This document shows, one piece after another, positions 55,970 to 64,000 of a stretch of 64,000 nt of DNA (within the stretch, counting starts at the first letter, position 1; each line of letters opens with the position of its first letter). The position numbers and the translations under genes are program-made. The stretch comes from Rhodococcus sp. SGAir0479. GTDB lineage: Bacteria > Actinomycetota > Actinomycetes > Mycobacteriales > Mycobacteriaceae. The stretch is from the NCBI RefSeq assembly GCF_005484805.1, contig NZ_CP039432.1, positions 3,162,001 through 3,226,000 of the forward strand, given 5' to 3'. The notes below the pieces were generated by a model, which made no database searches, had not been told where the DNA came from, and saw nothing but the letters and a program-made list of their open reading frames with translations.

Positions 55970-56854
55970 GTGCCGAGCCTGTCCAGTAGGGCCATGCCGT
56001 TGGCGATCGCGCTCCTGGGCCGGCGGCGGCCCACGGCGGACGACATCCGGCGCGAGATCGGGGCCCTGCAGGTGAAGCCCCGGCCGTTCGCGCCGCCGTC
56101 GGCGCTCGGACGCACCCTCGACGTCACCGCCGCCACCTCGGCGGCCGGCTGGCCGGTGTTCACCGTCGCCCCGCGCGGCGCCGCCCCCACCGCGCGCGTG
56201 CTGTATCTGCACGGCGGCGCCTACATCCGCGAGATCACCCGGCACCACTGGAAACTGGTGGGGCAGTTGGCGACCGCGGGCGCCGCCGTCACGGTGCCGA
56301 TCTACCCGCTGGCGCCGCGCGGTACGGCGTCGCACGTGGTGGCCGGATCGGCCGACCTCGCCGAGCGGGTGGCGAAGCACGACGAGCCGCTGGTGCTCGC
56401 GGGCGACTCCGCCGGTGGCGGGCTGGCCCTCGCAGTGGCGCTCGCGCTGCGCGATCGCGGCACCGCTTCCCCAGCCCACACCGCGCTGATCTCCCCGTGG
56501 CTGGACGCGACCGGGTCGCACCCGGAGATCCTCGAGATCGCCCCGCGGGATCCGTGGCTGCACCCGGGCGGACTCACGGTGGCCGCCGACGCCTACCGCG
56601 GCGAACTCGATCGGGAGCACCCGTGGGTGAGCCCGCTGAGCGGCGACCCGGCCGGGCTGGGCCCGATCACGCTGTTCACCGGCACCCGGGACATCCTCAA
56701 CGTCGACGCCCGCCGCTTCCGCCCACTGGCGGCCGCGGCGGGCGTGTCACTCGATTTCCACGAGGCGCAGGAGATGATCCACGTCTACCCGCTGCTACCG
56801 ATCCCGGAGGGCAAGAAAGCCCGCACAGTACTGTGCGGGCTTCTCGCGAACTAG
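55970..56854 (+). CDS. Alpha/beta hydrolase, hormone-sensitive lipase family
   Basis: 294 residues. LHGGAY oxyanion motif, GDSAGGGLA nucleophile, FTGTRDIL acid and EMIHVYPLL histidine, which together define the HSL (LipN/NlhH-like) esterases for short acyl chains. GTG start with GGGAG. Its last dozen codons run through a perfect 26-base palindrome that is the terminator shared with lpd. Confidence 0.88.
   Translation: MPSLSSRAMPLAIALLGRRRPTADDIRREIGALQVKPRPFAPPSALGRTLDVTAATSAAGWPVFTVAPRGAAPTARVLYLHGGAYIREITRHHWKLVGQLATAGAAVTVPIYPLAPRGTASHVVAGSADLAERVAKHDEPLVLAGDSAGGGLALAVALALRDRGTASPAHTALISPWLDATGSHPEILEIAPRDPWLHPGGLTVAADAYRGELDREHPWVSPLSGDPAGLGPITLFTGTRDILNVDARRFRPLAAAAGVSLDFHEAQEMIHVYPLLPIPEGKKARTVLCGLLAN
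56817..56842. terminator. Bidirectional terminator inside the end of a CDS
   Basis: A perfect 26-base palindrome (13-base arms, no spacer) whose second arm ends in ctt ctc. It lies within the last codons of the hydrolase and 32 bases beyond the lpd stop. Confidence 0.75.
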
Positions 56855-56873
56855 CTCTTCCGGCGGCGGACCG

Positions 56874-58277
56874 TCAGAAGTTGATCATGTGGCCGGCGAG
56901 GCCGTGGATGGCCTCCTGCAGCGCCTCGCTGAGCGTCGGATGCGTGTGGACGTTGCGCGCGAGCTCGTTGACCGTGAGGTCCCACTTCTGCGCCAGCGTC
57001 AGCTCGGGCAGCAGCTCGGAGACGTCGGGGCCGATGAGGTGGCCGCCGAGCAGCTCGCCGTACTTCTTGTCGGCGATGAGCTTGACGAAGCCGTTGGGGT
57101 CGTTCAGGCCGTGCGCCTTGCCGTTCGCGGTGAACGGGAAGGTGGCGACCTTGATGTCGTAGCCCTCGGCCTTGGCCTGCGCCTCGGTGAGACCGAAGCT
57201 CGCGACCTGCGGCTGGCAGAACGTGGCGCGCGGCATCATCCGGTAGTCGCCCAGCTCCTGGGTCTCGGCGTCACCGATGGTCTCGGCGGCGACGACGCCC
57301 TGCGCCTCGGCGACGTGCGCGAGCTGCAGCTTGGCAGTCACGTCACCGATGGCGTAGATGCCGGAGACGTTGGTGCGCATGCGCTCGTCGATCGCGATGG
57401 CGCCGCGCTCGGTGAGCTCGACACCCGTGTTCTCGAGGCCGTAGCCCTCGACCCGCGGGGCGAAGCCGACGGACTGCATGACCTTGTCGACGGTGACCGT
57501 CTCGGTCTCACCGGACTTGTTGTCCTTGATGGCGACGGTGACGTCGGAGCCGTTGTCGACGATCGATTGGACCGCGGCACCGGTCTTGATCTTGACGCCG
57601 AGCTTCTTGTAGTGCTTGGCGATCTCCTTGGAGACGTCCTCGTCCTCGTTGGGCAGTGCCCGGTCGAGGAACTCGACGATGGTGACGTCGACGCCGTAGT
57701 TGGCGAGGACGTAACCGAACTCCATGCCGATGGCGCCGGCGCCGACGATGACGATCGAACCGGGCAGGTCGCGGGTGAGGATCTGCTCCTCGTAGGTGAC
57801 GACGTTCTTGCTGAGCGACGTGCCCGGCAGGAGCTTGGTCACCGACCCGGTCGCGATGATGACGTTGTCGAAGGTCACCGTCTCGGTCTCGCCCGAGCCG
57901 AGTGCGACCGAGATGGTCTTGGCATCGACGAACGTGCCGCGACCGTCGTACTCGGTGATCTTGTTCTTCTTCATCAGGAAGTGCACGCCCTTGACGCGGC
58001 CGTCCGCGACCTTGCGGCTGCGGTCGTACGCCGCGCCGAAGTCGAACGACACGTCTCCCGACATACCGAACGCCTTCGCCTCCTTGTGGAAGATGTGCGC
58101 GAGTTCGGCATTGCGGAGAAGCGCCTTCGAGGGGATGCAGCCCACGTTCAGGCAGACACCGCCCCAGTACTTCTCTTCGATGATGGCGGTCTTGAGGCCC
58201 AGCTGTGCCGCGCGGATAGCAGCGACGTACCCACCGGGACCGGCTCCGAGGACAACGACGTCATAGTGTGAGGTCAC
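56874..58277 (-). CDS. lpd: Dihydrolipoyl dehydrogenase
   Basis: 467 residues. E3 component of 2-oxoacid dehydrogenases. FAD motif [18 protein letters not shown], redox pair [19 protein letters not shown] motif [13 protein letters not shown] and the C-terminal [13 protein letters not shown] with the catalytic His-Glu pair. Orthologue of mycobacterial LpdC (Rv0462), which also serves peroxynitrite reductase. GTG start; a TACGCT box lies 8 bases upstream. Confidence 0.95.
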
Positions 58278-58382
58278 GAGGCCCTAGCGTAGCCCCGCCC
58301 CGATCGGCTGTCCCGGGTTGGTGCTTACTCCCGAGTAAGTTCGCGTTGGGCGAGGCCGACGGCGGCGCCCGAGCGCCGAACA

Positions 58383-58424
58383 CACCTGCGACCCCAGTCG
58401 CCGCGGCGACTGGGGTCGGAGGTG
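58383..58424 (-). terminator. Strong terminator after the small-peptide genes
   Basis: A perfect palindrome of 30 bases (58389-58418) extended by five more pairs beyond one mismatch on each side, 8 bases after the last small-peptide stop and upstream of lpd. Confidence 0.8.
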
Positions 58425-58431
58425 CGAATGC

Positions 58432-58584
58432 TCAACTGAACGAGATCGAGCTCCCGAGATCTCCGATGGTGCTACCACCGAAGACACTGCCGCGGCCGAG
58501 ACCGAGGAGGGTGTCGAGCAGGCCCGACAGGGATCCCGTTGCCGGCTCGACCGGGGAGCCGAGACCGATTGCGTTCAGATTCAT
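58432..58584 (-). CDS. Small peptide SP3 (50 aa)
   Basis: Glycine/serine/leucine-rich peptide that begins NLNAIGLGSPVEP; one Arg and no Lys, no signal peptide. Shares the MNLxAI start with SP2. RBS AGGAAGG 8 bases before the ATG; strong terminator just behind the stop. Alternating Leu/Gly segment SGLLDTLLGLG could be amphipathic. Function unknown; pore-peptide-like (see findings). Confidence 0.65.
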   Translation of the reverse strand: MNLNAIGLGSPVEPATGSLSGLLDTLLGLGRGSVFGGSTIGDLGSSISFS

Positions 58585-58610
58585 GGCAGTCGCCTTCCTA
58601 CTACTCCGGT

Positions 58611-58636
58611 GGGATCTCGCCCTGTTGCGAGATCCC
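58611..58636 (-). repeat. Hairpin between SP2 and SP3
   Basis: Perfect 9-base arms (58611-58619, 58628-58636) and an 8-base loop directly after the SP2 stop; may set relative amounts of the two transcripts. Confidence 0.6.
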
Positions 58637-58640
58637 GCGA

Positions 58641-58724
58641 TCAGCTGAGCTCGGTGACGGAACCGAAGTTCACGATGTTGCCGATGACGCCGATGAGAGC
58701 AGCGAAGATGGCATCGAGGTTCAT
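58641..58724 (-). CDS. Small peptide SP2 (27 aa), paralogue of SP1
   Basis: 27 residues, acidic (no Lys/Arg), with a central hydrophobic helix (AIFAALIGVIGNIVNF) and the C-terminus GSVTELS. AAGGAAG 4-5 bases before the ATG. Differs from SP1 at residues 3, 17 and 18 only, while nine other codons differ silently, showing selection on the peptide. No signal peptide. Confidence 0.75.
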   Translation of the reverse strand: MNLDAIFAALIGVIGNIVNFGSVTELS

Positions 58725-58777
58725 GGTTCTTCCTTACTTTCGTGGTGGTTGTGTCGATGTGTTGCAGGTGGGACGAA

Positions 58778-58861
58778 CTAGCTGAGCTCGGTCACGCTTC
58801 CGAAGTTGATCAGGTTTCCGATCACTCCGATGAGCGCGGCGAAGATGGCGTCAGCGTTCAT
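58778..58861 (-). CDS. Small peptide SP1 (27 aa)
   Basis: 27 residues: MNADAIFAALIGVIGN then LINFGSVTELS. Acidic with no basic residue, one hydrophobic helix, no signal peptide. AAAGG lies 8 bases before the ATG. It is the first of three small genes behind the acyltransferase. A membrane-active or mycomembrane peptide is likely from composition; function unproven. Confidence 0.75.
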   Translation of the reverse strand: MNADAIFAALIGVIGNLINFGSVTELS

Positions 58862-59191
58862 GTGTCTTGCCTTTCGGGGGAGATTCCGTGAACTGCTTGT
58901 GATTGGTGTGTGATCTTTTTCAGCCCGGGCTAGGAGCTGGTGTCGCCGGGGGACCCCGCTACCCCGGCTGAGCAAACTCCCTGTACAACCCGTCCGTTTG
59001 ACGCTGGGTGCGGTGCGGCCGTGGTGTGCCACTCCGCGAGCGTGGGATCGGGAGGACGATCGCGTTTATTCGACCGTGATGAAAAAGATAGACGACGTTG
59101 CCGGACCGTGTCTGCGTTTTCGCGATTCAGTTGGGCGCTCGTCCAACTTGTCGGGTTATTCATCCGCCGACTCACCCCGGCGGGCAGCCGG
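58862..59191. other. 330-base gap between the acyltransferase and SP1
   Basis: Comprises the leader of SP1 on the minus strand and probably its promoter, which I could not place with confidence. It includes lower-GC segments near 58890-58925 and 59060-59105. No further gene seen. Confidence 0.4.
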
Positions 59192-60661
59192 TCAGGCCGG
59201 TGTCGCCGCCGCGTCGGGGTCCGCGAAAGGCTCGGACCCGCGCGCACGCACCGCGTCGTGCAGTTCGCCCAGACTCGTGCGGATCACTTCGAGGTAGTGC
59301 GGCAGGTCCGGCATCACCTCGGGATCGGCGATGACGGTCAGGACGAGGTCGCCGCCGGACGCGGTCGTGACGAAGTGGCGCAACCGATCCCCGTCGATGG
59401 GTGGTTGCGAGCCGAGGACCGCGACCGCGCGGGCCCCACCGAAGGTGAGCCCGTCGACGGTCAGCGGAATGTTGCTGATCATCGTGTGGGAGGTGCGGGA
59501 GGTGTTGGATTCGTAGCGATTACGCCGGCGCAGGTATGCCGCCAGGCGCCAGATCAGGGGCGGAGCGGTGTCCATCGCGGCCACCTGTCGCCGCATCGCG
59601 GGATGCGACGTGCGCTTCTTCTCCAGACGCGAGGACGCCGAGACGGCCGTCAGGCGATCGACCGGATCGGCGACGTCCGTGTGCATGTCGACCGCGAGAA
59701 CGACCAGTTGATTGGCCGACTGCCACCGTTCCAGTCGCCGCATCGACCGCGGAACCATGGCCACCAGGGCGCCGTCCGGCCGCTCGCCGTGCTCACGCAG
59801 GTACCGATCGAGAGCACCGCCGACTGCCGCCAGCACGACGTCGTTGATGGTGATCCCCGGCGCAGCCGACCGGGTCGCCGCAACCTGCTTGCCCGGCAGC
59901 ACGATCGAGCGGAGACAGGCGCGGCCGCTGGCAACGGTGTTGAAGCGGGTTGCCGGCCGCCTCGGCAGGCGCGGCCAGTCCCCGGCGGCACAGGCCGCCT
60001 CGACGGCGCGCGCCGACGCGCGGTTCCCGGGGACGGAGCGGACCAGCGTCCGTGTCCGGCGGGGGATGTCGCGAACGGACCGGACGAGCATCCGGGTTCT
60101 CGGGAGACGAACGGGGGCGGCGGCCGGGGCCGGGAGCGGCGTCTCGGAGAACAGCTTGTGTGCCAGCTCCATGACCGCGAGCCCGTCGGCGGCGCTGTGG
60201 TGAAGCTTGAGCGCCACCGCGGTCACCGGCCCGTCGTGCAGGTCGAGACCGGTCACGCCGGTGATGACGTGCAGTTCCCACGGCGGCCGCGCCAGGTCGA
60301 CGCGGGAGGTGACCATTTCGCCCAGGAGCGGCCCGACGCCGTCCCAGCCCGGGCCCGGAGCCGCCCACACCCGGAGGTGGTGGCGCAGGTCGACGGTCTC
60401 GGTGGGAACCCAGTGCGGGTGGTCGATACCGAGGGGAGATCGTGTGATCACGGACGTGAATACCCGGTGGCTACCGAGCCTGGCATGCATCCATTCCCGT
60501 ACGCGTTCCTCGGTGAGGGACGTGGACGACGCCGACGTCTCGTCGAACAGATACACGGCCACCAGGTGCTCGAGATGTCCGTCGTGCTCGTTGTAGACAA
60601 ACTCGGCGTCTCGCGGTTCCAGCCGTGCACACCGTGACTCGAATCCCGGATCTGCGCGCAC
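59192..60661 (-). CDS. WS/DGAT-type acyltransferase
   Basis: 489 residues. LKLHHSAADGLAVMEL carries the HHxxxDG catalytic motif of wax ester synthase/diacylglycerol acyltransferases; VYLFDETSA...EWMHARLG and WVPTETVDLRHHLR match the N-terminal domain and SNIPLTVDGLTFGGARAVAV the C-terminal one. These enzymes move acyl chains from acyl-CoA to alcohols or diacylglycerol. The GTG at 60661 has GGAGGA 7-8 bases upstream. It is flanked on both sides by small-peptide genes on the same strand, which is not the usual context of a storage-lipid enzyme. Confidence 0.85.
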   Translation of the reverse strand: MRADPGFESRCARLEPRDAEFVYNEHDGHLEHLVAVYLFDETSASSTSLTEERVREWMHARLGSHRVFTSVITRSPLGIDHPHWVPTETVDLRHHLRVWAAPGPGWDGVGPLLGEMVTSRVDLARPPWELHVITGVTGLDLHDGPVTAVALKLHHSAADGLAVMELAHKLFSETPLPAPAAAPVRLPRTRMLVRSVRDIPRRTRTLVRSVPGNRASARAVEAACAAGDWPRLPRRPATRFNTVASGRACLRSIVLPGKQVAATRSAAPGITINDVVLAAVGGALDRYLREHGERPDGALVAMVPRSMRRLERWQSANQLVVLAVDMHTDVADPVDRLTAVSASSRLEKKRTSHPAMRRQVAAMDTAPPLIWRLAAYLRRRNRYESNTSRTSHTMISNIPLTVDGLTFGGARAVAVLGSQPPIDGDRLRHFVTTASGGDLVLTVIADPEVMPDLPHYLEVIRTSLGELHDAVRARGSEPFADPDAAATPA

Positions 60662-60706
60662 TCTGCATTCCTCCACGTTTTCGACGCCTACTCGACGAGA
60701 CGACAG

Positions 60707-60743
60707 CGAGACCGCAGGCACCCGCGGGGCGCCTGCGGTCTCG
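60707..60743 (-). terminator. Hairpin between SP4 and the acyltransferase
   Basis: Perfect 13-base arms (60707-60719, 60731-60743) and an 11-base loop, 16 bases after the SP4 stop; the acyltransferase start follows 46 bases later. Confidence 0.7.
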
Positions 60744-60758
60744 ATGGTCGTTCTGTGG

Positions 60759-60860
60759 TCACTTCTGAGGAGGGTTCTCCAGCATCTTGCTGCCGATACC
60801 GGTGAAGCCGACCAGGCCGCCGATATACGAGACGATCTGAACAATGTACTTCTGCAACAT
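60759..60860 (-). CDS. Small peptide SP4 (33 aa)
   Basis: 33 residues: a short amphipathic helix MLQKYIVQIVSYIGGLVGF followed by a polar, proline-containing tail. The only one of the set with several lysines; looks like a phenol-soluble-modulin-sized peptide. AAAGGGGA 6 bases before the ATG is a strong RBS. Confidence 0.7.
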   Translation of the reverse strand: MLQKYIVQIVSYIGGLVGFTGIGSKMLENPPQK

Positions 60861-60872
60861 CGTGGTTCCCCT

Positions 60873-60986
60873 TTACACCGGCGGCCGATTGAGGGACAGC
60901 GCATCGAGGTAGGACGCCAGCACCCCTACCAGGTCGATCGACCCGAAGTCGATCAGGTCGGAACTGTAGGTCAACGACAGGTCCAT
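60873..60986 (-). CDS. Small peptide SP5 (37 aa), PorH-like start
   Basis: 37 residues from the ATG that has AAAGGAG 7-8 bases upstream (an ATG two codons earlier is too close to it). Begins MDLSL, as C. glutamicum PorH does in my memory, then alternates hydrophobic and acidic/serine residues (SSDLIDFGSIDLVGVLASYL). No signal peptide, one Arg, no Lys. 12 bases before SP4. Confidence 0.7.
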   Translation of the reverse strand: MDLSLTYSSDLIDFGSIDLVGVLASYLDALSLNRPPV

Positions 60987-61004
60987 CTGCATTCTCCTTT
61001 GAAA

Positions 61005-61199
61005 TTACGTGCCGCTGGATCCGACGATGTCCTGGATGCTGCCCGCCGCACCCGACGAGCCGGCCGGCCAGAGCGCGATCACGTCGCCGACGACATCGAA
61101 CATCGAGTTGACGAGATTCACCACGGGGCCGAGGATGACTTCACTCCACGGCATTACGTCGACGCTGGTGAGAAGGTCGACGAGGCTACCTGTGTTCAC
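61005..61199 (-). CDS. Small peptide SP6 (64 aa)
   Basis: 64 residues with no Lys or Arg, several Asp/Glu, a hydrophobic helix region (VILGPVVNLVNSMFDVVGDV) and a Gly/Ser-rich end. GTG start with AAGGAG upstream. Similar in composition and length to PorH-type peptides; no signal peptide. 18 bases before SP5. Confidence 0.75.
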   Translation of the reverse strand: MNTGSLVDLLTSVDVMPWSEVILGPVVNLVNSMFDVVGDVIALWPAGSSGAAGSIQDIVGSSGT

Positions 61200-61227
61200 G
61201 ATTCTCCACTCCTTCTGCGAGATATTG

Positions 61228-61356
61228 TCAGCCCATGATCGGCGGCGGTTCCCAGCCGCCGTCCACCGAATAGGCGAAGGGCGAGAAGAGAAGCGTTGCC
61301 ACGATCTGCTGGATCGATGGATTCTGGAGCAGGGGCGCTAGCGACCCGAGTGTCAT
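61228..61356 (-). CDS. Small peptide SP7 (42 aa)
   Basis: 42 residues: MTLGSLAPLLQNPSIQQIVA, a hydrophobic core, then an aromatic/proline-rich end (YSVDGGWEPPP). No basic residue. AGGAG 6-7 bases before the ATG. Confidence 0.7.
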   Translation of the reverse strand: MTLGSLAPLLQNPSIQQIVATLLFSPFAYSVDGGWEPPPIMG

Positions 61357-61400
61357 TTCATTCTCCTAAGCTGGATGGATGCCCGAGCTGGCGCTGCGCG

Positions 61401-61532
61401 TCAGCTCTCGCTGATGACATCGGCGAGCGAGCCCAGTGCCGCGCCGGTGCCTGGTGTCACCGACCCCGAGTAGATGGCTTGGGCCAGGCCTTGAAAAAAT
61501 GCCGCCGTTGCCTGCAGGAACGACACACTCAT
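61401..61532 (-). CDS. Small peptide SP8 (43 aa)
   Basis: 43 residues: MSVSFLQATAAFFQGLAQAI, then a Gly/Ser/Thr-rich segment and acidic end. No Lys/Arg. AAAGGAAAGGA before the ATG. It is the first gene of the row SP8-SP7-SP6-SP5-SP4, all on the minus strand with gaps of 12-44 bases. Confidence 0.7.
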   Translation of the reverse strand: MSVSFLQATAAFFQGLAQAIYSGSVTPGTGAALGSLADVISES

Positions 61533-61998
61533 GTGTATTCCTTTCCTTTCATTGGTTGCTTTTTCGGTACCGCGTCCGCCCCGAATCGGTTACGCGAGCG
61601 CGAATCCGATTGCACTGAAGTTCCGATGGAGCATAACCACTCGAATCGCCCGTGGGAGCCCATTTCGGAAAAATTGCGGCGATCGCCTGTTCGACAATTC
61701 TGAAGAGTTGTTTCGACAGTCGAGCACAACCCATTGCCGAGAGGCTGCGCGTTCCCCGCCTTCCCCCTTCATTCCAACTTCGAGCCCCGAGCCTGGACGC
61801 GACACGTGCGATCGGGACACGAATCTATTGCACGAGGTCACGGTTCGGTGGCGTTTTCGCCGGGATCGAACGAATCCCCGAACAGTCCGCCTTCGATGAC
61901 AAATTGTTCGTTCGGCCCAGGCAGGAGGTGCCGCCCGGCACGAGCATTCCGGACCGCACCTCCGAGCTTTCGGAATCGATCCGAAGCGGCTCGTCGAA
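61533..61998. other. 466-base upstream region of the small-peptide cluster
   Basis: Lower in GC than the average. Should hold the promoter of SP8-SP4; I could not identify convincing boxes. Two inverted repeats lie near its right end: ggaggtgc/gcacctcc (61924-61931, 61956-61963) and ttcgga/tccgaa (61969-61985), likely the terminator of the exported protein. Confidence 0.45.
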
Positions 61999-62712
61999 CT
62001 AGTGCAGAGTGCCGGCGCCGGCGTTCAGCGTCGGAGTGCTCCCGACGGCACCGCCCGCGTCCGCAGGAATGCAGTTGGTCGCCGCGTTGGCAGGTCCGAA
62101 CGGGCCCGTCGCCTTCGAGACGAAGGTGAAGTAGTCAGCGGCGTTCCCGTACTTCGCCGCGTCACCCGCCGTGTTGAGTCTCACGTCGAAGTTGGTGTTC
62201 TTGGTGACGATTCGAACCTTCGGCAGCTGGTACGTCGTACTCACGCCGACCGCCAGCGGAGCAGCGCTCGTTCCACTCAACGTCAGCACAGAGCCCGACA
62301 CCGAGACCTGCGGTGTACCGCTGTAGCCGGACCCCGTGCCACTGACGATCGACGCGCTCACGAAGGTCGACGGGTCGATGCTGTAGTCGACGGCGATCTG
62401 GTCGAGCCCCGTGAACGAGTAGCCGGGAACACCCGTGCCACCGGCACCCGGCGTCGTCTGCGCGCCCATCTGGAGTTCGTAGGTGTTGTTCGATCCCGTG
62501 GGGGCCACCACGGTGTGGTTGACGGTCACCGAAGCCGGCTCGATCTTCTGTGAGCTGATCCCGAGGACCGAACCGATGCACGCGTTGTTGAAGTTCGTGG
62601 TAGTCGAGCCGGCGACTGCGCCGGCGGGTGCTCCGGCTGCCAGCAGCAAGCCGGCGGACGCTGCGGTGGCGGCGAGACCGACGGTGACGCGACGGGCGAG
62701 AGGTGTGCTCAT
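61999..62712 (-). CDS. Exported protein of unknown function
   Basis: 237 residues. Signal peptide 1-34 (STPLARRVTVGL then an Ala/Leu/Gly core, cleavage near GAVAGS). The mature part is Ser/Thr/Gly-rich, predicted mainly beta, with two cysteines (NNACIGS near its start, TNCIPAD near its end) that may form a disulfide tying the ends together. Not recognised. Position just upstream of the small-peptide cluster on the same strand suggests a shared envelope role. ATG with AGGA upstream. Confidence 0.75.
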   Translation of the reverse strand: MSTPLARRVTVGLAATAASAGLLLAAGAPAGAVAGSTTTNFNNACIGSVLGISSQKIEPASVTVNHTVVAPTGSNNTYELQMGAQTTPGAGGTGVPGYSFTGLDQIAVDYSIDPSTFVSASIVSGTGSGYSGTPQVSVSGSVLTLSGTSAAPLAVGVSTTYQLPKVRIVTKNTNFDVRLNTAGDAAKYGNAADYFTFVSKATGPFGPANAATNCIPADAGGAVGSTPTLNAGAGTLH

Positions 62713-63146
62713 GCTGTCCTGCTCCTTGTCTCCGCTCACTCCTGGCGAGCGGGCTGATGCCCTCGAGGTGGAGGGCGTTCGGAAGAGATCGACGAGCTGT
62801 ACTGCCTGGGTTCGATCGCGAGCGATCGGTCGGATCCGATACCCCGGAAGCTTGCGATCCGGACACGAATGTAGGGAGGCGGATCACGAAGGGATCGCGT
62901 CTCGGCAAAAGAACGGAAAGATTCGCACCGGAAGCGTCGGAACGGGACAGTTTCTTTCGTTGTACGGCAGTGCAATGAAAGATCGTTCGGACGCACCGGT
63001 GCGAATCCGAAGCGGTACTCCGAGTAACACTCGGAGGCGGCCTCCGCGGCGTCGTCGCCCCCCGACCGGCGGCCCGGTATCACCCGGTCGGCGAGTTTTC
63101 CGTCAAACGCCCCGTCAGCACAGGCCGATGAATTACTCTGTGCGCC
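62713..63146. promoter_or_regulatory. 434-base divergent intergenic region with palindromes
   Basis: Between the exported protein and the double-Lrp gene. Contains a spaced inverted repeat GATTCGCACCGG/CCGGTGCGAATC (62920-62931 and 62996-63007, perfect 12-base arms, 64 bases apart), the palindrome GCACCGGTGC (62993-63002) and CTCCGAGT/ACTCGGAG (63018-63036). Probable operators of the Lrp-like regulator. No gene seen. Confidence 0.55.
63134..63139 (+). promoter_or_regulatory. -10 box of a leaderless promoter (TACTCT)
   Basis: TACTCT ends 7 bases before the ATG at 63147. Confidence 0.6.
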
Positions 63147-64000
63147 ATGGGGAGAGCTTCGGGGATCTCGTCACCTGACGATGAGTCGTTGGGTCCGGTC
63201 GATCGCATTCTGGTCGACGCTCTCGTGGAGAACTGTCGAGTTTCCTTCACCGCGTTGGCAGCCAAGGTGGGCATGTCGGGATCAACGGTGTGTCGGCACA
63301 TTTCGGCCCTCGAACACCGCGGCATCATTCGCGGATACTTCGCCGTGATCGATCCCGGGGCGCTGGGCGAACCCACCACTGCCCTGTTCAGCATCAAGCC
63401 CCGGTCCGACACCCCTGCGCTGCGAATTGCCGAGCGGCTGTACGCGGTCCCGGAGATCACCGCGAGCTACACCCTGTCCGGAGACCGCCCCCACATCGCG
63501 GTCGGCCGCTTCGCGGGTCCCGACGCCGCCGAGGTCGCGGCCCGCCGTCTCGCCGACGACCTGTGCGCCCGGGTCAACATCGATTTCGTGCTGGAGACGC
63601 GGTTCGGTCGCATGGCCTGGTCCCCCGCCTCCGCCGTGGAACCGGTGGAGCGCGAGGCGGACCGCGTCATGCTCGACATCCTCATGACGGACGGGCGGGC
63701 CTCCCTCGACGCGTTGGCCAAACAGGCGAACCTGTCCAAATCCACGGTCCACAAACGGCTGCACGTCCTGCGGAATCGCGGCGTCATCCGCGGCTTCACC
63801 ACGCGGGTCGACGCCGCGGCACTCGGCCGCCCCGTCACCGCCGTCTTCGGCATCAAGTCCGACACCGGCGCCCCCGTCGACCCGGCGGCCTACGAGCGGC
63901 TCGGCGATTTTCCCGAGATCGCGACGTACTACACGCTGTCCGGCCACCGCCCGTCCGTTGCCGTGGGCGCGTACCGCGACATCACGGCCGCCCGCACCGC
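63147..64000 (+). CDS. Double Lrp/AsnC-family regulator (3' end outside window)
   Basis: The frame is open to the right edge (284 codons). Two complete Lrp/AsnC units in tandem: HTH 1 (DRILVDALVENCRVSFTALA, about 20-65) with ligand domain 1 (about 75-150), then HTH 2 (DRVMLDILMTDGRASLDALA, about 170-215) with ligand domain 2 to the edge. The copies share patterns such as YTLSGDRPHIAVGRF and YTLSGHRPSVAVGAY. Usual Lrp proteins have one unit and about 150 residues. Start set by the leaderless promoter. Confidence 0.85.
   Translation, partial: MGRASGISSPDDESLGPVDRILVDALVENCRVSFTALAAKVGMSGSTVCRHISALEHRGIIRGYFAVIDPGALGEPTTALFSIKPRSDTPALRIAERLYAVPEITASYTLSGDRPHIAVGRFAGPDAAEVAARRLADDLCARVNIDFVLETRFGRMAWSPASAVEPVEREADRVMLDILMTDGRASLDALAKQANLSKSTVHKRLHVLRNRGVIRGFTTRVDAAALGRPVTAVFGIKSDTGAPVDPAAYERLGDFPEIATYYTLSGHRPSVAVGAYRDITAART

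What the first reader, a model, noticed from the sequence alone, without database searches (positions are those of the whole stretch)
58432..61532. Cluster of at least eight tiny peptide genes around a WS/DGAT acyltransferase; candidate new mycomembrane peptide system
Seen: on the minus strand, SP8-SP7-SP6-SP5-SP4, then the acyltransferase, then SP1-SP2-SP3, each of 27-64 codons, almost all with a clear purine-rich ribosome binding site, spaced as in an operon, with hairpins between blocks and a strong terminator at the end. The peptides lack signal sequences, six of eight have at most one basic residue, and all are rich in Gly/Ser/aliphatic residues. Known: C. glutamicum PorA (45 aa) and PorH (57 aa) are signal-less, acidic, O-mycoloylated peptides that form outer-membrane channels. 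Inference: these peptides are pore or envelope peptides and the acyltransferase may modify them or make a co-functioning lipid.
Basis: partly seen in the sequence, partly recalled or inferred. Interest (0 to 1): 0.92.

Follow-up and report, generated by a model that had tools for sequence, protein, structure and literature searches.

The report
Conserved tiny-peptide clusters in Prescottella
A relative of Rhodococcus equi carries conserved clusters of very small, signal-less, glycine-serine peptides near lipid-transfer enzyme genes, probably outer-membrane peptides that work like the corynebacterial PorA/PorH porins although no relationship to them could be detected.

Summary
The eight peptide genes are real. 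The first five (61532-60759) recur in the same order in 12 of 14 Prescottella genomes, and the last three (58861-58432) in 14 of 14, always before lpd. For SP1-SP5 and SP8 third codon positions change most. In 10 of the 12 genomes with both, the two sets are separate loci; the window and Rhodococcus sp. OK519 have them side by side.

A second locus gives the best functional clue: a WS/DGAT paralogue beside similar peptides and a secreted mycoloyltransferase, in Prescottella and in two other genera of the family. The peptides are mostly acidic, partly amphipathic and strongly enriched in Gly-Ser.

Best reading: O-mycoloylated mycomembrane peptides that work like Corynebacterium PorA/PorH. No sequence relationship was detected (a weak test), so membership is not claimed. 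Acylation and pores are inferred. The acyltransferase is not required for the five-peptide set: it is broken in one genome and absent in another where the peptides persist.

Caveats: the second-locus mycoloyltransferase is not the closest Cmt1 match in the window genome, every Prescottella genome searched has an MspA-family porin gene, and nothing here shows expression. New variant of a known kind.

The parts
61401..61532 (-).
   Evidence: 43 aa in 12 of 12 loci
61228..61356 (-). SP2, 42 aa, N-terminal GS
   Evidence: tblastn in 10 of 11 related loci, the 11th (L031) by position
61005..61199 (-). SP3, 64 aa, GTG start, TGSLVDL...TSVD...LWPAGS
60873..60986 (-). SP4, 37 aa from the ATG at 60986 (an in-frame ATG at 60992 would give 39 aa), FGS(I/V)DLV
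60759..60860 (-). SP5, 33 aa, GSK...NPPQK; the only cationic one (net +2)
60690..60762 (-). long G+C-rich hairpin between SP5 and the acyltransferase
   Evidence: -47.2 kcal/mol, z -6.1
59192..60661 (-). WS/DGAT-type O-acyltransferase, 489 aa, HHSAADG motif (HHxxxDG, motif name recalled)
   Evidence: (TIGR02946 303.5 bits, just under its cut-off 309.95)
58862..58990 (-). conserved, partly structured leader upstream of SP6
   Evidence: weak: window stretch folds no better than shuffles, z +0.1
58778..58861 (-). SP6, 27 aa
58641..58724 (-). SP7, 27 aa, near-copy of SP6 (89% identical)
58432..58584 (-). SP8, 50 aa, Ser/Gly-rich C-terminus RGSVFGGST.GDLGS.ISFS
58385..58434 (-). 13-bp hairpin after SP8, no T-run found
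56874..58277 (-). neighbouring dihydrolipoyl dehydrogenase-like gene (lpd; name recalled from the sequence), downstream of SP6-SP8 in 14 of 14 genomes; neighbour, not proposed as part of the system

Best explanation
SP1-SP5 and SP6-SP8 encode signal-less alpha-helical peptides of the outer mycolic-acid membrane. They leave the cell by the unknown route that PorA/PorH also use, are O-mycoloylated on serines in the conserved Gly-Ser motifs by secreted mycoloyltransferases (encoded elsewhere for these two loci, next door for the paralogous second locus), and assemble as hetero-oligomers in the mycomembrane, perhaps as small channels or as wall-linked structural peptides. The linked WS/DGAT enzyme most likely makes a neutral lipid or ester that accompanies them; it is helpful, not required. 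Shown here: the genes, their conservation and selection, the locus architecture, and the co-location of such peptides with mycoloyltransferase and WS/DGAT genes across three genera. Inferred: export, acylation, membrane insertion, pore activity and the role of WS/DGAT.
For: Order and frames conserved in 12 of 14 genomes (SP1-SP5) and 14 of 14 (SP6-SP8). Purifying selection on SP1-SP5, SP8 and pA. Second locus WS/DGAT - pA - pB - mycoloyltransferase - more peptides in P. equi DSM 20307, OK519 and G013 and, with two peptides found, in the window's own genome; the same four parts in G033 and G324 of other genera. The P. equi enzyme matches Cmt1 (172 bits) better than Ag85C (94 bits); Cmt1 is the enzyme that mycoloylates PorA/PorH (PMC12632848 sections, PMC11066868 passages). 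Gly-Ser 38 observed against 14.3 expected and FGS 8 against 0.64 over 16 peptide families, reached by 0 of 5000 shuffles, while the reverse Ser-Gly is not enriched (10 against 14.4); mapped O-mycoloyl sites lie among Ser and small residues such as Gly and Ala, with no strict motif (PMC11066868, passages). Amphipathicity above shuffles as a set (mean z 1.65 over 16). AlphaFold2 gives helix - GS loop - helix for SP1 (pLDDT 69).
Against: No mycoloyltransferase gene is among the long ORFs next to SP1-SP8 in the window. The second-locus enzyme is not the closest Cmt1 match in the window genome: another scores 263 bits. All 14 Prescottella genomes have an MspA-family match. SP4 is not amphipathic (z -1.7) and SP2 hardly (z 0.3). 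Structure models are low-confidence (61 and 69). The pooled SP6/SP7/SP9 family shows weak constraint: pN/pS 0.75, first positions changing more than third. No expression or proteome data.
Confidence: 0.55

Rival explanations
1. The peptides are amphipathic coat or activator peptides of lipid droplets or of the WS/DGAT enzyme inside the cell; they work with triacylglycerol or wax ester storage, not in the outer membrane.
For: WS/DGAT genes lie beside such peptides at two paralogous loci; in a 17-row tree the enzymes of the two loci are parted by a 100/100 branch (with long-branch warnings, and the L021 enzyme left out). Amphipathic as a set. No evident signal peptides.
Against: SP1-SP5 intact where the enzyme is broken or absent, 2 of 12. 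The second locus includes a secreted mycoloyltransferase, kept in three genera. No WS/DGAT homologue in the 6.5-7.5 kb read around SP6-SP8 in 12 of 14 genomes.
Confidence: 0.2
2. They are secreted multi-peptide membrane-active agents, such as leaderless bacteriocins or phenol-soluble-modulin-like surfactants.
For: Several short leaderless peptides with separate ribosome binding sites, tandem copies (SP6/SP7), helical prediction.
Against: Seven of eight are net negative. Present in 12 or 14 of 14 genomes of the genus, unlike most bacteriocin loci (recalled). Exporter or immunity genes were not systematically searched for; of the window's neighbours only the WS/DGAT, the secreted protein and the Lrp-like gene were family-scanned.
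Confidence: 0.08
3. SP6/SP7 are small hydrophobic toxins of type I toxin-antitoxin pairs, or the ORFs are regulatory leader peptides; SP1-SP5 would then be a separate matter.
For: 27 aa, hydrophobic, tandem copies, weak constraint, conserved leader.
Against: Always followed by SP8 and then lpd, 14 of 14; invariant GS and C-terminal Ser; no Rfam match at a family's gathering score in window 56500-63500.
Confidence: 0.07
4. The peptides are mycomembrane proteins but not channels: O-mycoloylated wall-to-membrane linkers or surface coat, like the wall-linked ProtX, with MspA doing the porin work. This is a version of the favoured reading, not exclusive of it.
For: MspA-family match in 14 of 14 genomes; PorH and ProtX are wall-linked in C. 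glutamicum (PMC12632848, abstract and sections read); very Ser/Gly-rich SP8 C-terminus.
Against: No direct evidence either way; PorA/PorH, of like size and charge, do form channels.
Confidence: 0.3

Closest known systems
Corynebacterium PorA/PorH (two-gene operon, 45 and 57 aa, O-mycoloylated)
   Same: Small size, no evident signal sequence, mostly acidic, partly amphipathic, adjacent small genes with their own ribosome binding sites (PMC5310785, first part of the introduction read). Poor sequence conservation is usual for this kind even within Corynebacterium (PMC3792995, passages read).
   Different: No detectable sequence similarity (weak test); five- and three-gene sets instead of two; window neighbours are WS/DGAT and lpd, not groEL2 and a polyphosphate kinase; acylation and pores untested.
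Corynebacterium ProtX (O-mycoloylated, wall-linked small helical protein)
   Same: Small, signal-less, mycomembrane, required by phage Cog for adsorption (PMC9671496 passages, PMC12632848 sections); a possible functional parallel.
   Different: Its sequence was not compared here; that it is not part of a peptide cluster is recalled.
MspA-family porins (PF09203), e.g. PorARc of R. corynebacteroides, PorARr and PorBRr of R. ruber
   Same: Cell-wall channels of rhodococci identified by gene in PMC9233653 (abstract and passages read).
   Different: Genes of 540-702 bp with signal peptides. Prescottella has such genes as well.
WS/DGAT family O-acyltransferase (TIGR02946, PF03007/PF06974)
   Same: Both Pfam domains, HHxxxDG.
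   Different: TIGR02946 score just under its cut-off; linked to peptide genes at two loci.

Membership tests
PorA/PorH porins | sequence homology to PorA or PorH | tested here: inconclusive
   hhalign of seven peptide profiles against single PorA and PorH sequences (14 pairs): probabilities 0.1-3.6%; in 11 of 14 at least 1 of 10 column shuffles scored as well.
PorA/PorH porins | about 40-60 aa, no signal sequence, acidic | tested here: inconclusive
   27-64 aa; seven of eight net negative, SP5 +2; absence of a signal peptide judged by eye, no predictor run
PorA/PorH porins | amphipathic alpha-helix | tested here: inconclusive
   SP1 and SP3 yes, SP4 no; 16 families as a set above shuffles; low-confidence helical models
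PorA/PorH porins | two-gene operon between groEL2 and a polyphosphate kinase gene | tested here: not met
   window cluster lies between a secreted-protein gene and lpd; the groEL2 locus of this genome was not examined
PorA/PorH porins | O-mycoloylated serine | not testable with these tools
   Gly-Ser enrichment is suggestive only
PorA/PorH porins | channel formation in lipid bilayers | not testable with these tools
   needs purified peptide
Cmt1/MytC protein mycoloyltransferase (second-locus enzyme) | closest relative of Cmt1 in the genome | tested here: not met
   P. equi second-locus enzyme 172 bits to Cmt1; the window genome's copy (65% identical) could not be scored. Of the 10 matches in the window genome 5 were scored: L108 263 bits, L116 192, L110 180 (PS1 200), L112 166, L106 148
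Mycoloyltransferase family (PF00756, Ag85/Cmt/PS1 kind) | domain match | tested here: met
   PF00756 E 1.3e-31 to 1.7e-27 in 4 of 4 proteins scanned; Cmt1, PS1 and Ag85 are the best solved matches of the one scored. Secretion judged by eye from the N-terminus
WS/DGAT | both Pfam domains and HHxxxDG | tested here: met

The most novel reading that the evidence does not exclude
An independent, multi-component mycomembrane peptide system, unrelated in sequence to PorA/PorH, that pairs signal-less peptides with two kinds of acyltransferase: a secreted mycoloyltransferase and a cytosolic WS/DGAT. Its peptides may be acylated twice, inside by acyl-CoA-dependent WS/DGAT on serine (a new route of bacterial protein lipidation) and outside by mycoloyl transfer.
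Probability: 0.12. Interest if true: 0.93.

Novelty: new variant of a known kind. Interest (0 to 1): 0.78.

Why it matters
Protein O-mycoloylation and signal-less helical porins are known from Corynebacterium, and a 2017 paper states that it remains to be addressed whether mycoloylation exists in other Corynebacteriales (PMC5310785, introduction). These loci name concrete candidate substrates and a candidate enzyme in Prescottella (the genus of Rhodococcus equi) and in two other genera. Two cell-wall channels of R. equi, one of them anion-selective, were reported in 2003 (Riess et al., as cited in PMC9233653; the paper itself is not held; that their genes are unidentified is recalled); these peptides are candidates. 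They would also be candidate phage receptors, as ProtX and PorA serve phage Cog (PMC9671496, passages).

Tried and rejected
Homology to PorA/PorH: not found, weak test. Kinship among the SP families: suggestive only (best SP4-SP6/7 40.8% and SP1-SP3 32.7% hhalign probability, none of 10 shuffles as good), not claimed. Pfam/NCBIfam: nothing above a cut-off for SP1-SP5, SP7 and SP8; SP6 was not scanned, being SP7's near-copy; SP5 has four NCBIfam matches at E 0.028-0.056, bits 13.5-14.8 against cut-offs 70-85. Two weak glycine-zipper families among the 14 SP8 members, best E 0.04 and 0.3. Riboswitch idea for the SP6 leader: no Rfam match at gathering score. Sigma-70-type promoter scan over 58000-62800: none. 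Reach beyond the genus: SP4, SP6/7/9 and SP8 profiles gave, besides the window genome, only four marginal hits (E 0.004-0.04, in open frames of 176 to 4603 aa) in draws of 298, 397 and 397 genomes of the order; only pA crossed genera, in 2 of the 396 other genomes. The listed rows of those draws show no Prescottella genome but the window's. 'All eight as one operon' was rejected because the sets lie apart in 10 of the 12 genomes with both. The enzyme tree has a long branch at the window protein and lacks its closest homologue L021, so I draw no transfer history.

Selection of peptides: second-locus peptides pA-pH and pI were picked by filters on ribosome binding site, length and few basic residues or His, and also no Cys, so their low basic content, and for pI the lack of Cys, are partly by choice; the Gly-Ser test uses shuffles that keep composition. 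pI comes from one locus.
Full report
OBSERVATION. The window lies in a 4.97-Mb genome of two contigs. On the minus strand run SP1-SP5, a WS/DGAT acyltransferase, then SP6-SP8 and lpd. All eight peptides have a ribosome-binding run at normal spacing. Seven of eight have at most one Lys/Arg; SP5 has three. Strong hairpins follow SP5, SP7 and SP8, without the T-run of a classical terminator.

CONSERVATION. SP3 as a single sequence hit 11 of 13 other genomes of the genus and 0 of 47 genomes outside it. The SP4 profile gives E 1.5e-19 or better in 12 of 14 genus genomes (own included); G004 and G013 give only E 0.5-0.9. The five genes keep their order in the window and all 11 related loci; SP2 of L031 was not hit by tblastn and is assigned by position, start and ribosome binding site. 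SP1 is 43 aa in 12 of 12. Pooled pN/pS for SP1-SP5 is 0.17, 0.29, 0.28 and 0.39 in four close pairs and 0.50-0.52 in three distant pairs, with third positions changing most; single-gene values scatter, two of them near 1. Spacers and genes have similar raw identity in the four close pairs, so the codon pattern, not raw identity, is the evidence for coding. SP8 has ratio 0.37 and pA 0.43; the pooled SP6/SP7/SP9 family, paralogues included, only 0.75, with first positions changing more than third.

TWO LOCI. SP6-SP8 occur in 14 of 14 genus genomes, the SP6/SP7 type in one to three copies, always followed by lpd. SP8 of G007 is short (33 aa) and divergent. In 10 genomes SP1-SP5 lies elsewhere, in 2 it is missing, and only the window and OK519 have both sets side by side. 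In these two genomes the site that holds SP1-SP5 in most relatives has a WS/DGAT and no SP1-SP5-like peptide among the small ORFs that passed my filter (L093, L094).

THE ACYLTRANSFERASE IS DISPENSABLE. Of the 12 SP1-SP5 loci, the adjacent WS/DGAT is intact in 10, broken by frame changes and stops in G009 (OK519) and missing in G011, whose best match anywhere is 27% identical. OK519 has another homologue at 48%, so a substitute there is possible.

SECOND LOCUS. Following the WS/DGAT paralogues led to a second peptide locus. In P. equi DSM 20307 it runs WS/DGAT - pA (64 aa) - pB (38 aa) - secreted mycoloyltransferase - four more peptides. OK519 has two further peptides before the enzyme. In the window's own genome I found pA, pB and the enzyme. 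The enzyme carries PF00756 in 4 of 4 proteins scanned. The P. equi one matches Cmt1 at 172 bits, PS1 at 156 and Ag85C at 94. pA occurs in 10 of 14 genus genomes and in 2 of the 396 other genomes drawn from the order, E 5.7e-5 and 2.4e-4, both of the same family but other genera. In those two the set is WS/DGAT - pA - pB - mycoloyltransferase - mycoloyltransferase (G033) and pA - pB - mycoloyltransferase with a convergent WS/DGAT (G324) (tblastn). P. subtropica (G006) has WS/DGAT - pA - pB - mycoloyltransferase. Five further pA loci were read by ORF only: L126, L128 and L129 show pA, pB and an ORF of the enzyme's length; L130 shows four peptides and ends before any enzyme; in L131 the pA frame and the long ORF were seen but pB was not listed. 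The caution: the enzyme finds 10 matches in the window genome and 13 in P. equi, and the best Cmt1 match among the five scored in the window genome is another one, 263 bits. So the second-locus enzyme is a mycoloyltransferase beside peptides, not the Cmt1 counterpart.

CHEMISTRY. Taking one representative of 16 peptide families, Gly-Ser occurs 38 times against 14.3 in shuffles and FGS 8 times against 0.64, each reached by 0 of 5000 shuffles; 15 of 16 have Gly-Ser (7 of 5000); Ser-Gly is not enriched. Families may not be independent. None of the 16 has Cys or His, for the added peptides partly by my filters. As a set they are more amphipathic than shuffles (mean z 1.65), SP4 being an exception. 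AlphaFold2 gives helices at low confidence (SP1 69, SP3 61).

MECHANISM. In C. glutamicum, PorA (45 aa) and PorH (57 aa) lack signal sequences, are O-mycoloylated on Ser15 and Ser56, and need one of the two modifications to assemble; Cmt1 is the enzyme (PMC5310785, first part of the introduction; PMC12632848, abstract and three sections; PMC11066868, passages). A serine among small, flexible residues is typical of mapped sites (PMC11066868). The peptides here fit that description, and an enzyme of the class lies beside their kin. I therefore favour mycomembrane peptides acylated in trans (0.55). Pores are possible, but MspA-family genes are present in 14 of 14 genomes, so linker or coat roles are nearly as likely. 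The figures given to the rivals are not exclusive of one another: the linker reading is a version of the favoured one.

KNOWN OR NEW. Sequence comparison with PorA/PorH found nothing, with a test too weak to relate PorA to PorH either, so this is not filed as PorA/PorH; the kind diverges fast even within Corynebacterium (PMC3792995, passages). In the held library I searched for rhodococcal PorA/PorH, R. equi channels, mycoloylation in Rhodococcus, mycoloyltransferase with PorH and Nocardia, wax ester synthase with mycomembrane, and Prescottella small ORFs. I saw no report of these peptides in the listings, which show only the top rows, and most subscription papers are not held. Public annotation of these chromosomes was not available to check. 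Verdict: new variant of a known kind.

After holding the report against the calls I corrected how often the two sets lie apart, marked the PorA/PorH homology test as inconclusive because its own control failed, and added the weak SP6/SP7 constraint.

Noticed in passing
L056:4168-4254 minus (G000:C1 about 555167): SP9, a solitary 27-29 aa paralogue of SP6/SP7 at another chromosomal site, read in six loci: the window genome and five others.
   Followed up: partly
window 58862-58990 (minus): Leader before SP6 conserved in an alignment of 12 (window and 11 relatives); 3 of 12 predicted pairs have a double change, no Rfam match at gathering score.
   Followed up: partly
window 61999-62712 (minus): Secreted-looking 237-aa protein without Pfam or NCBIfam match; homologues upstream of SP6-SP8 in 4 of the 14 genomes.
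   Followed up: no
L109 (G010:C5 about 294747): A 46-aa Gly/Ser peptide on the strand opposite to another mycoloyltransferase-like gene in P. equi DSM 20307.
   Followed up: no
G000 and G010: Ten and thirteen mycoloyltransferase-like matches respectively; the R. equi genome paper names four Fbp/antigen 85 homologues (PMC2947987, passages).
   Followed up: partly
L093 and L094: WS/DGAT genes (48-49% identical to the window's) at the site where most relatives keep SP1-SP5, but without these peptides, in the window genome and OK519.
   Followed up: partly
window 63147-63998 (plus): Lrp/AsnC-type regulator with two HTH stretches, running off the window end, near the peptide region.
   Followed up: no
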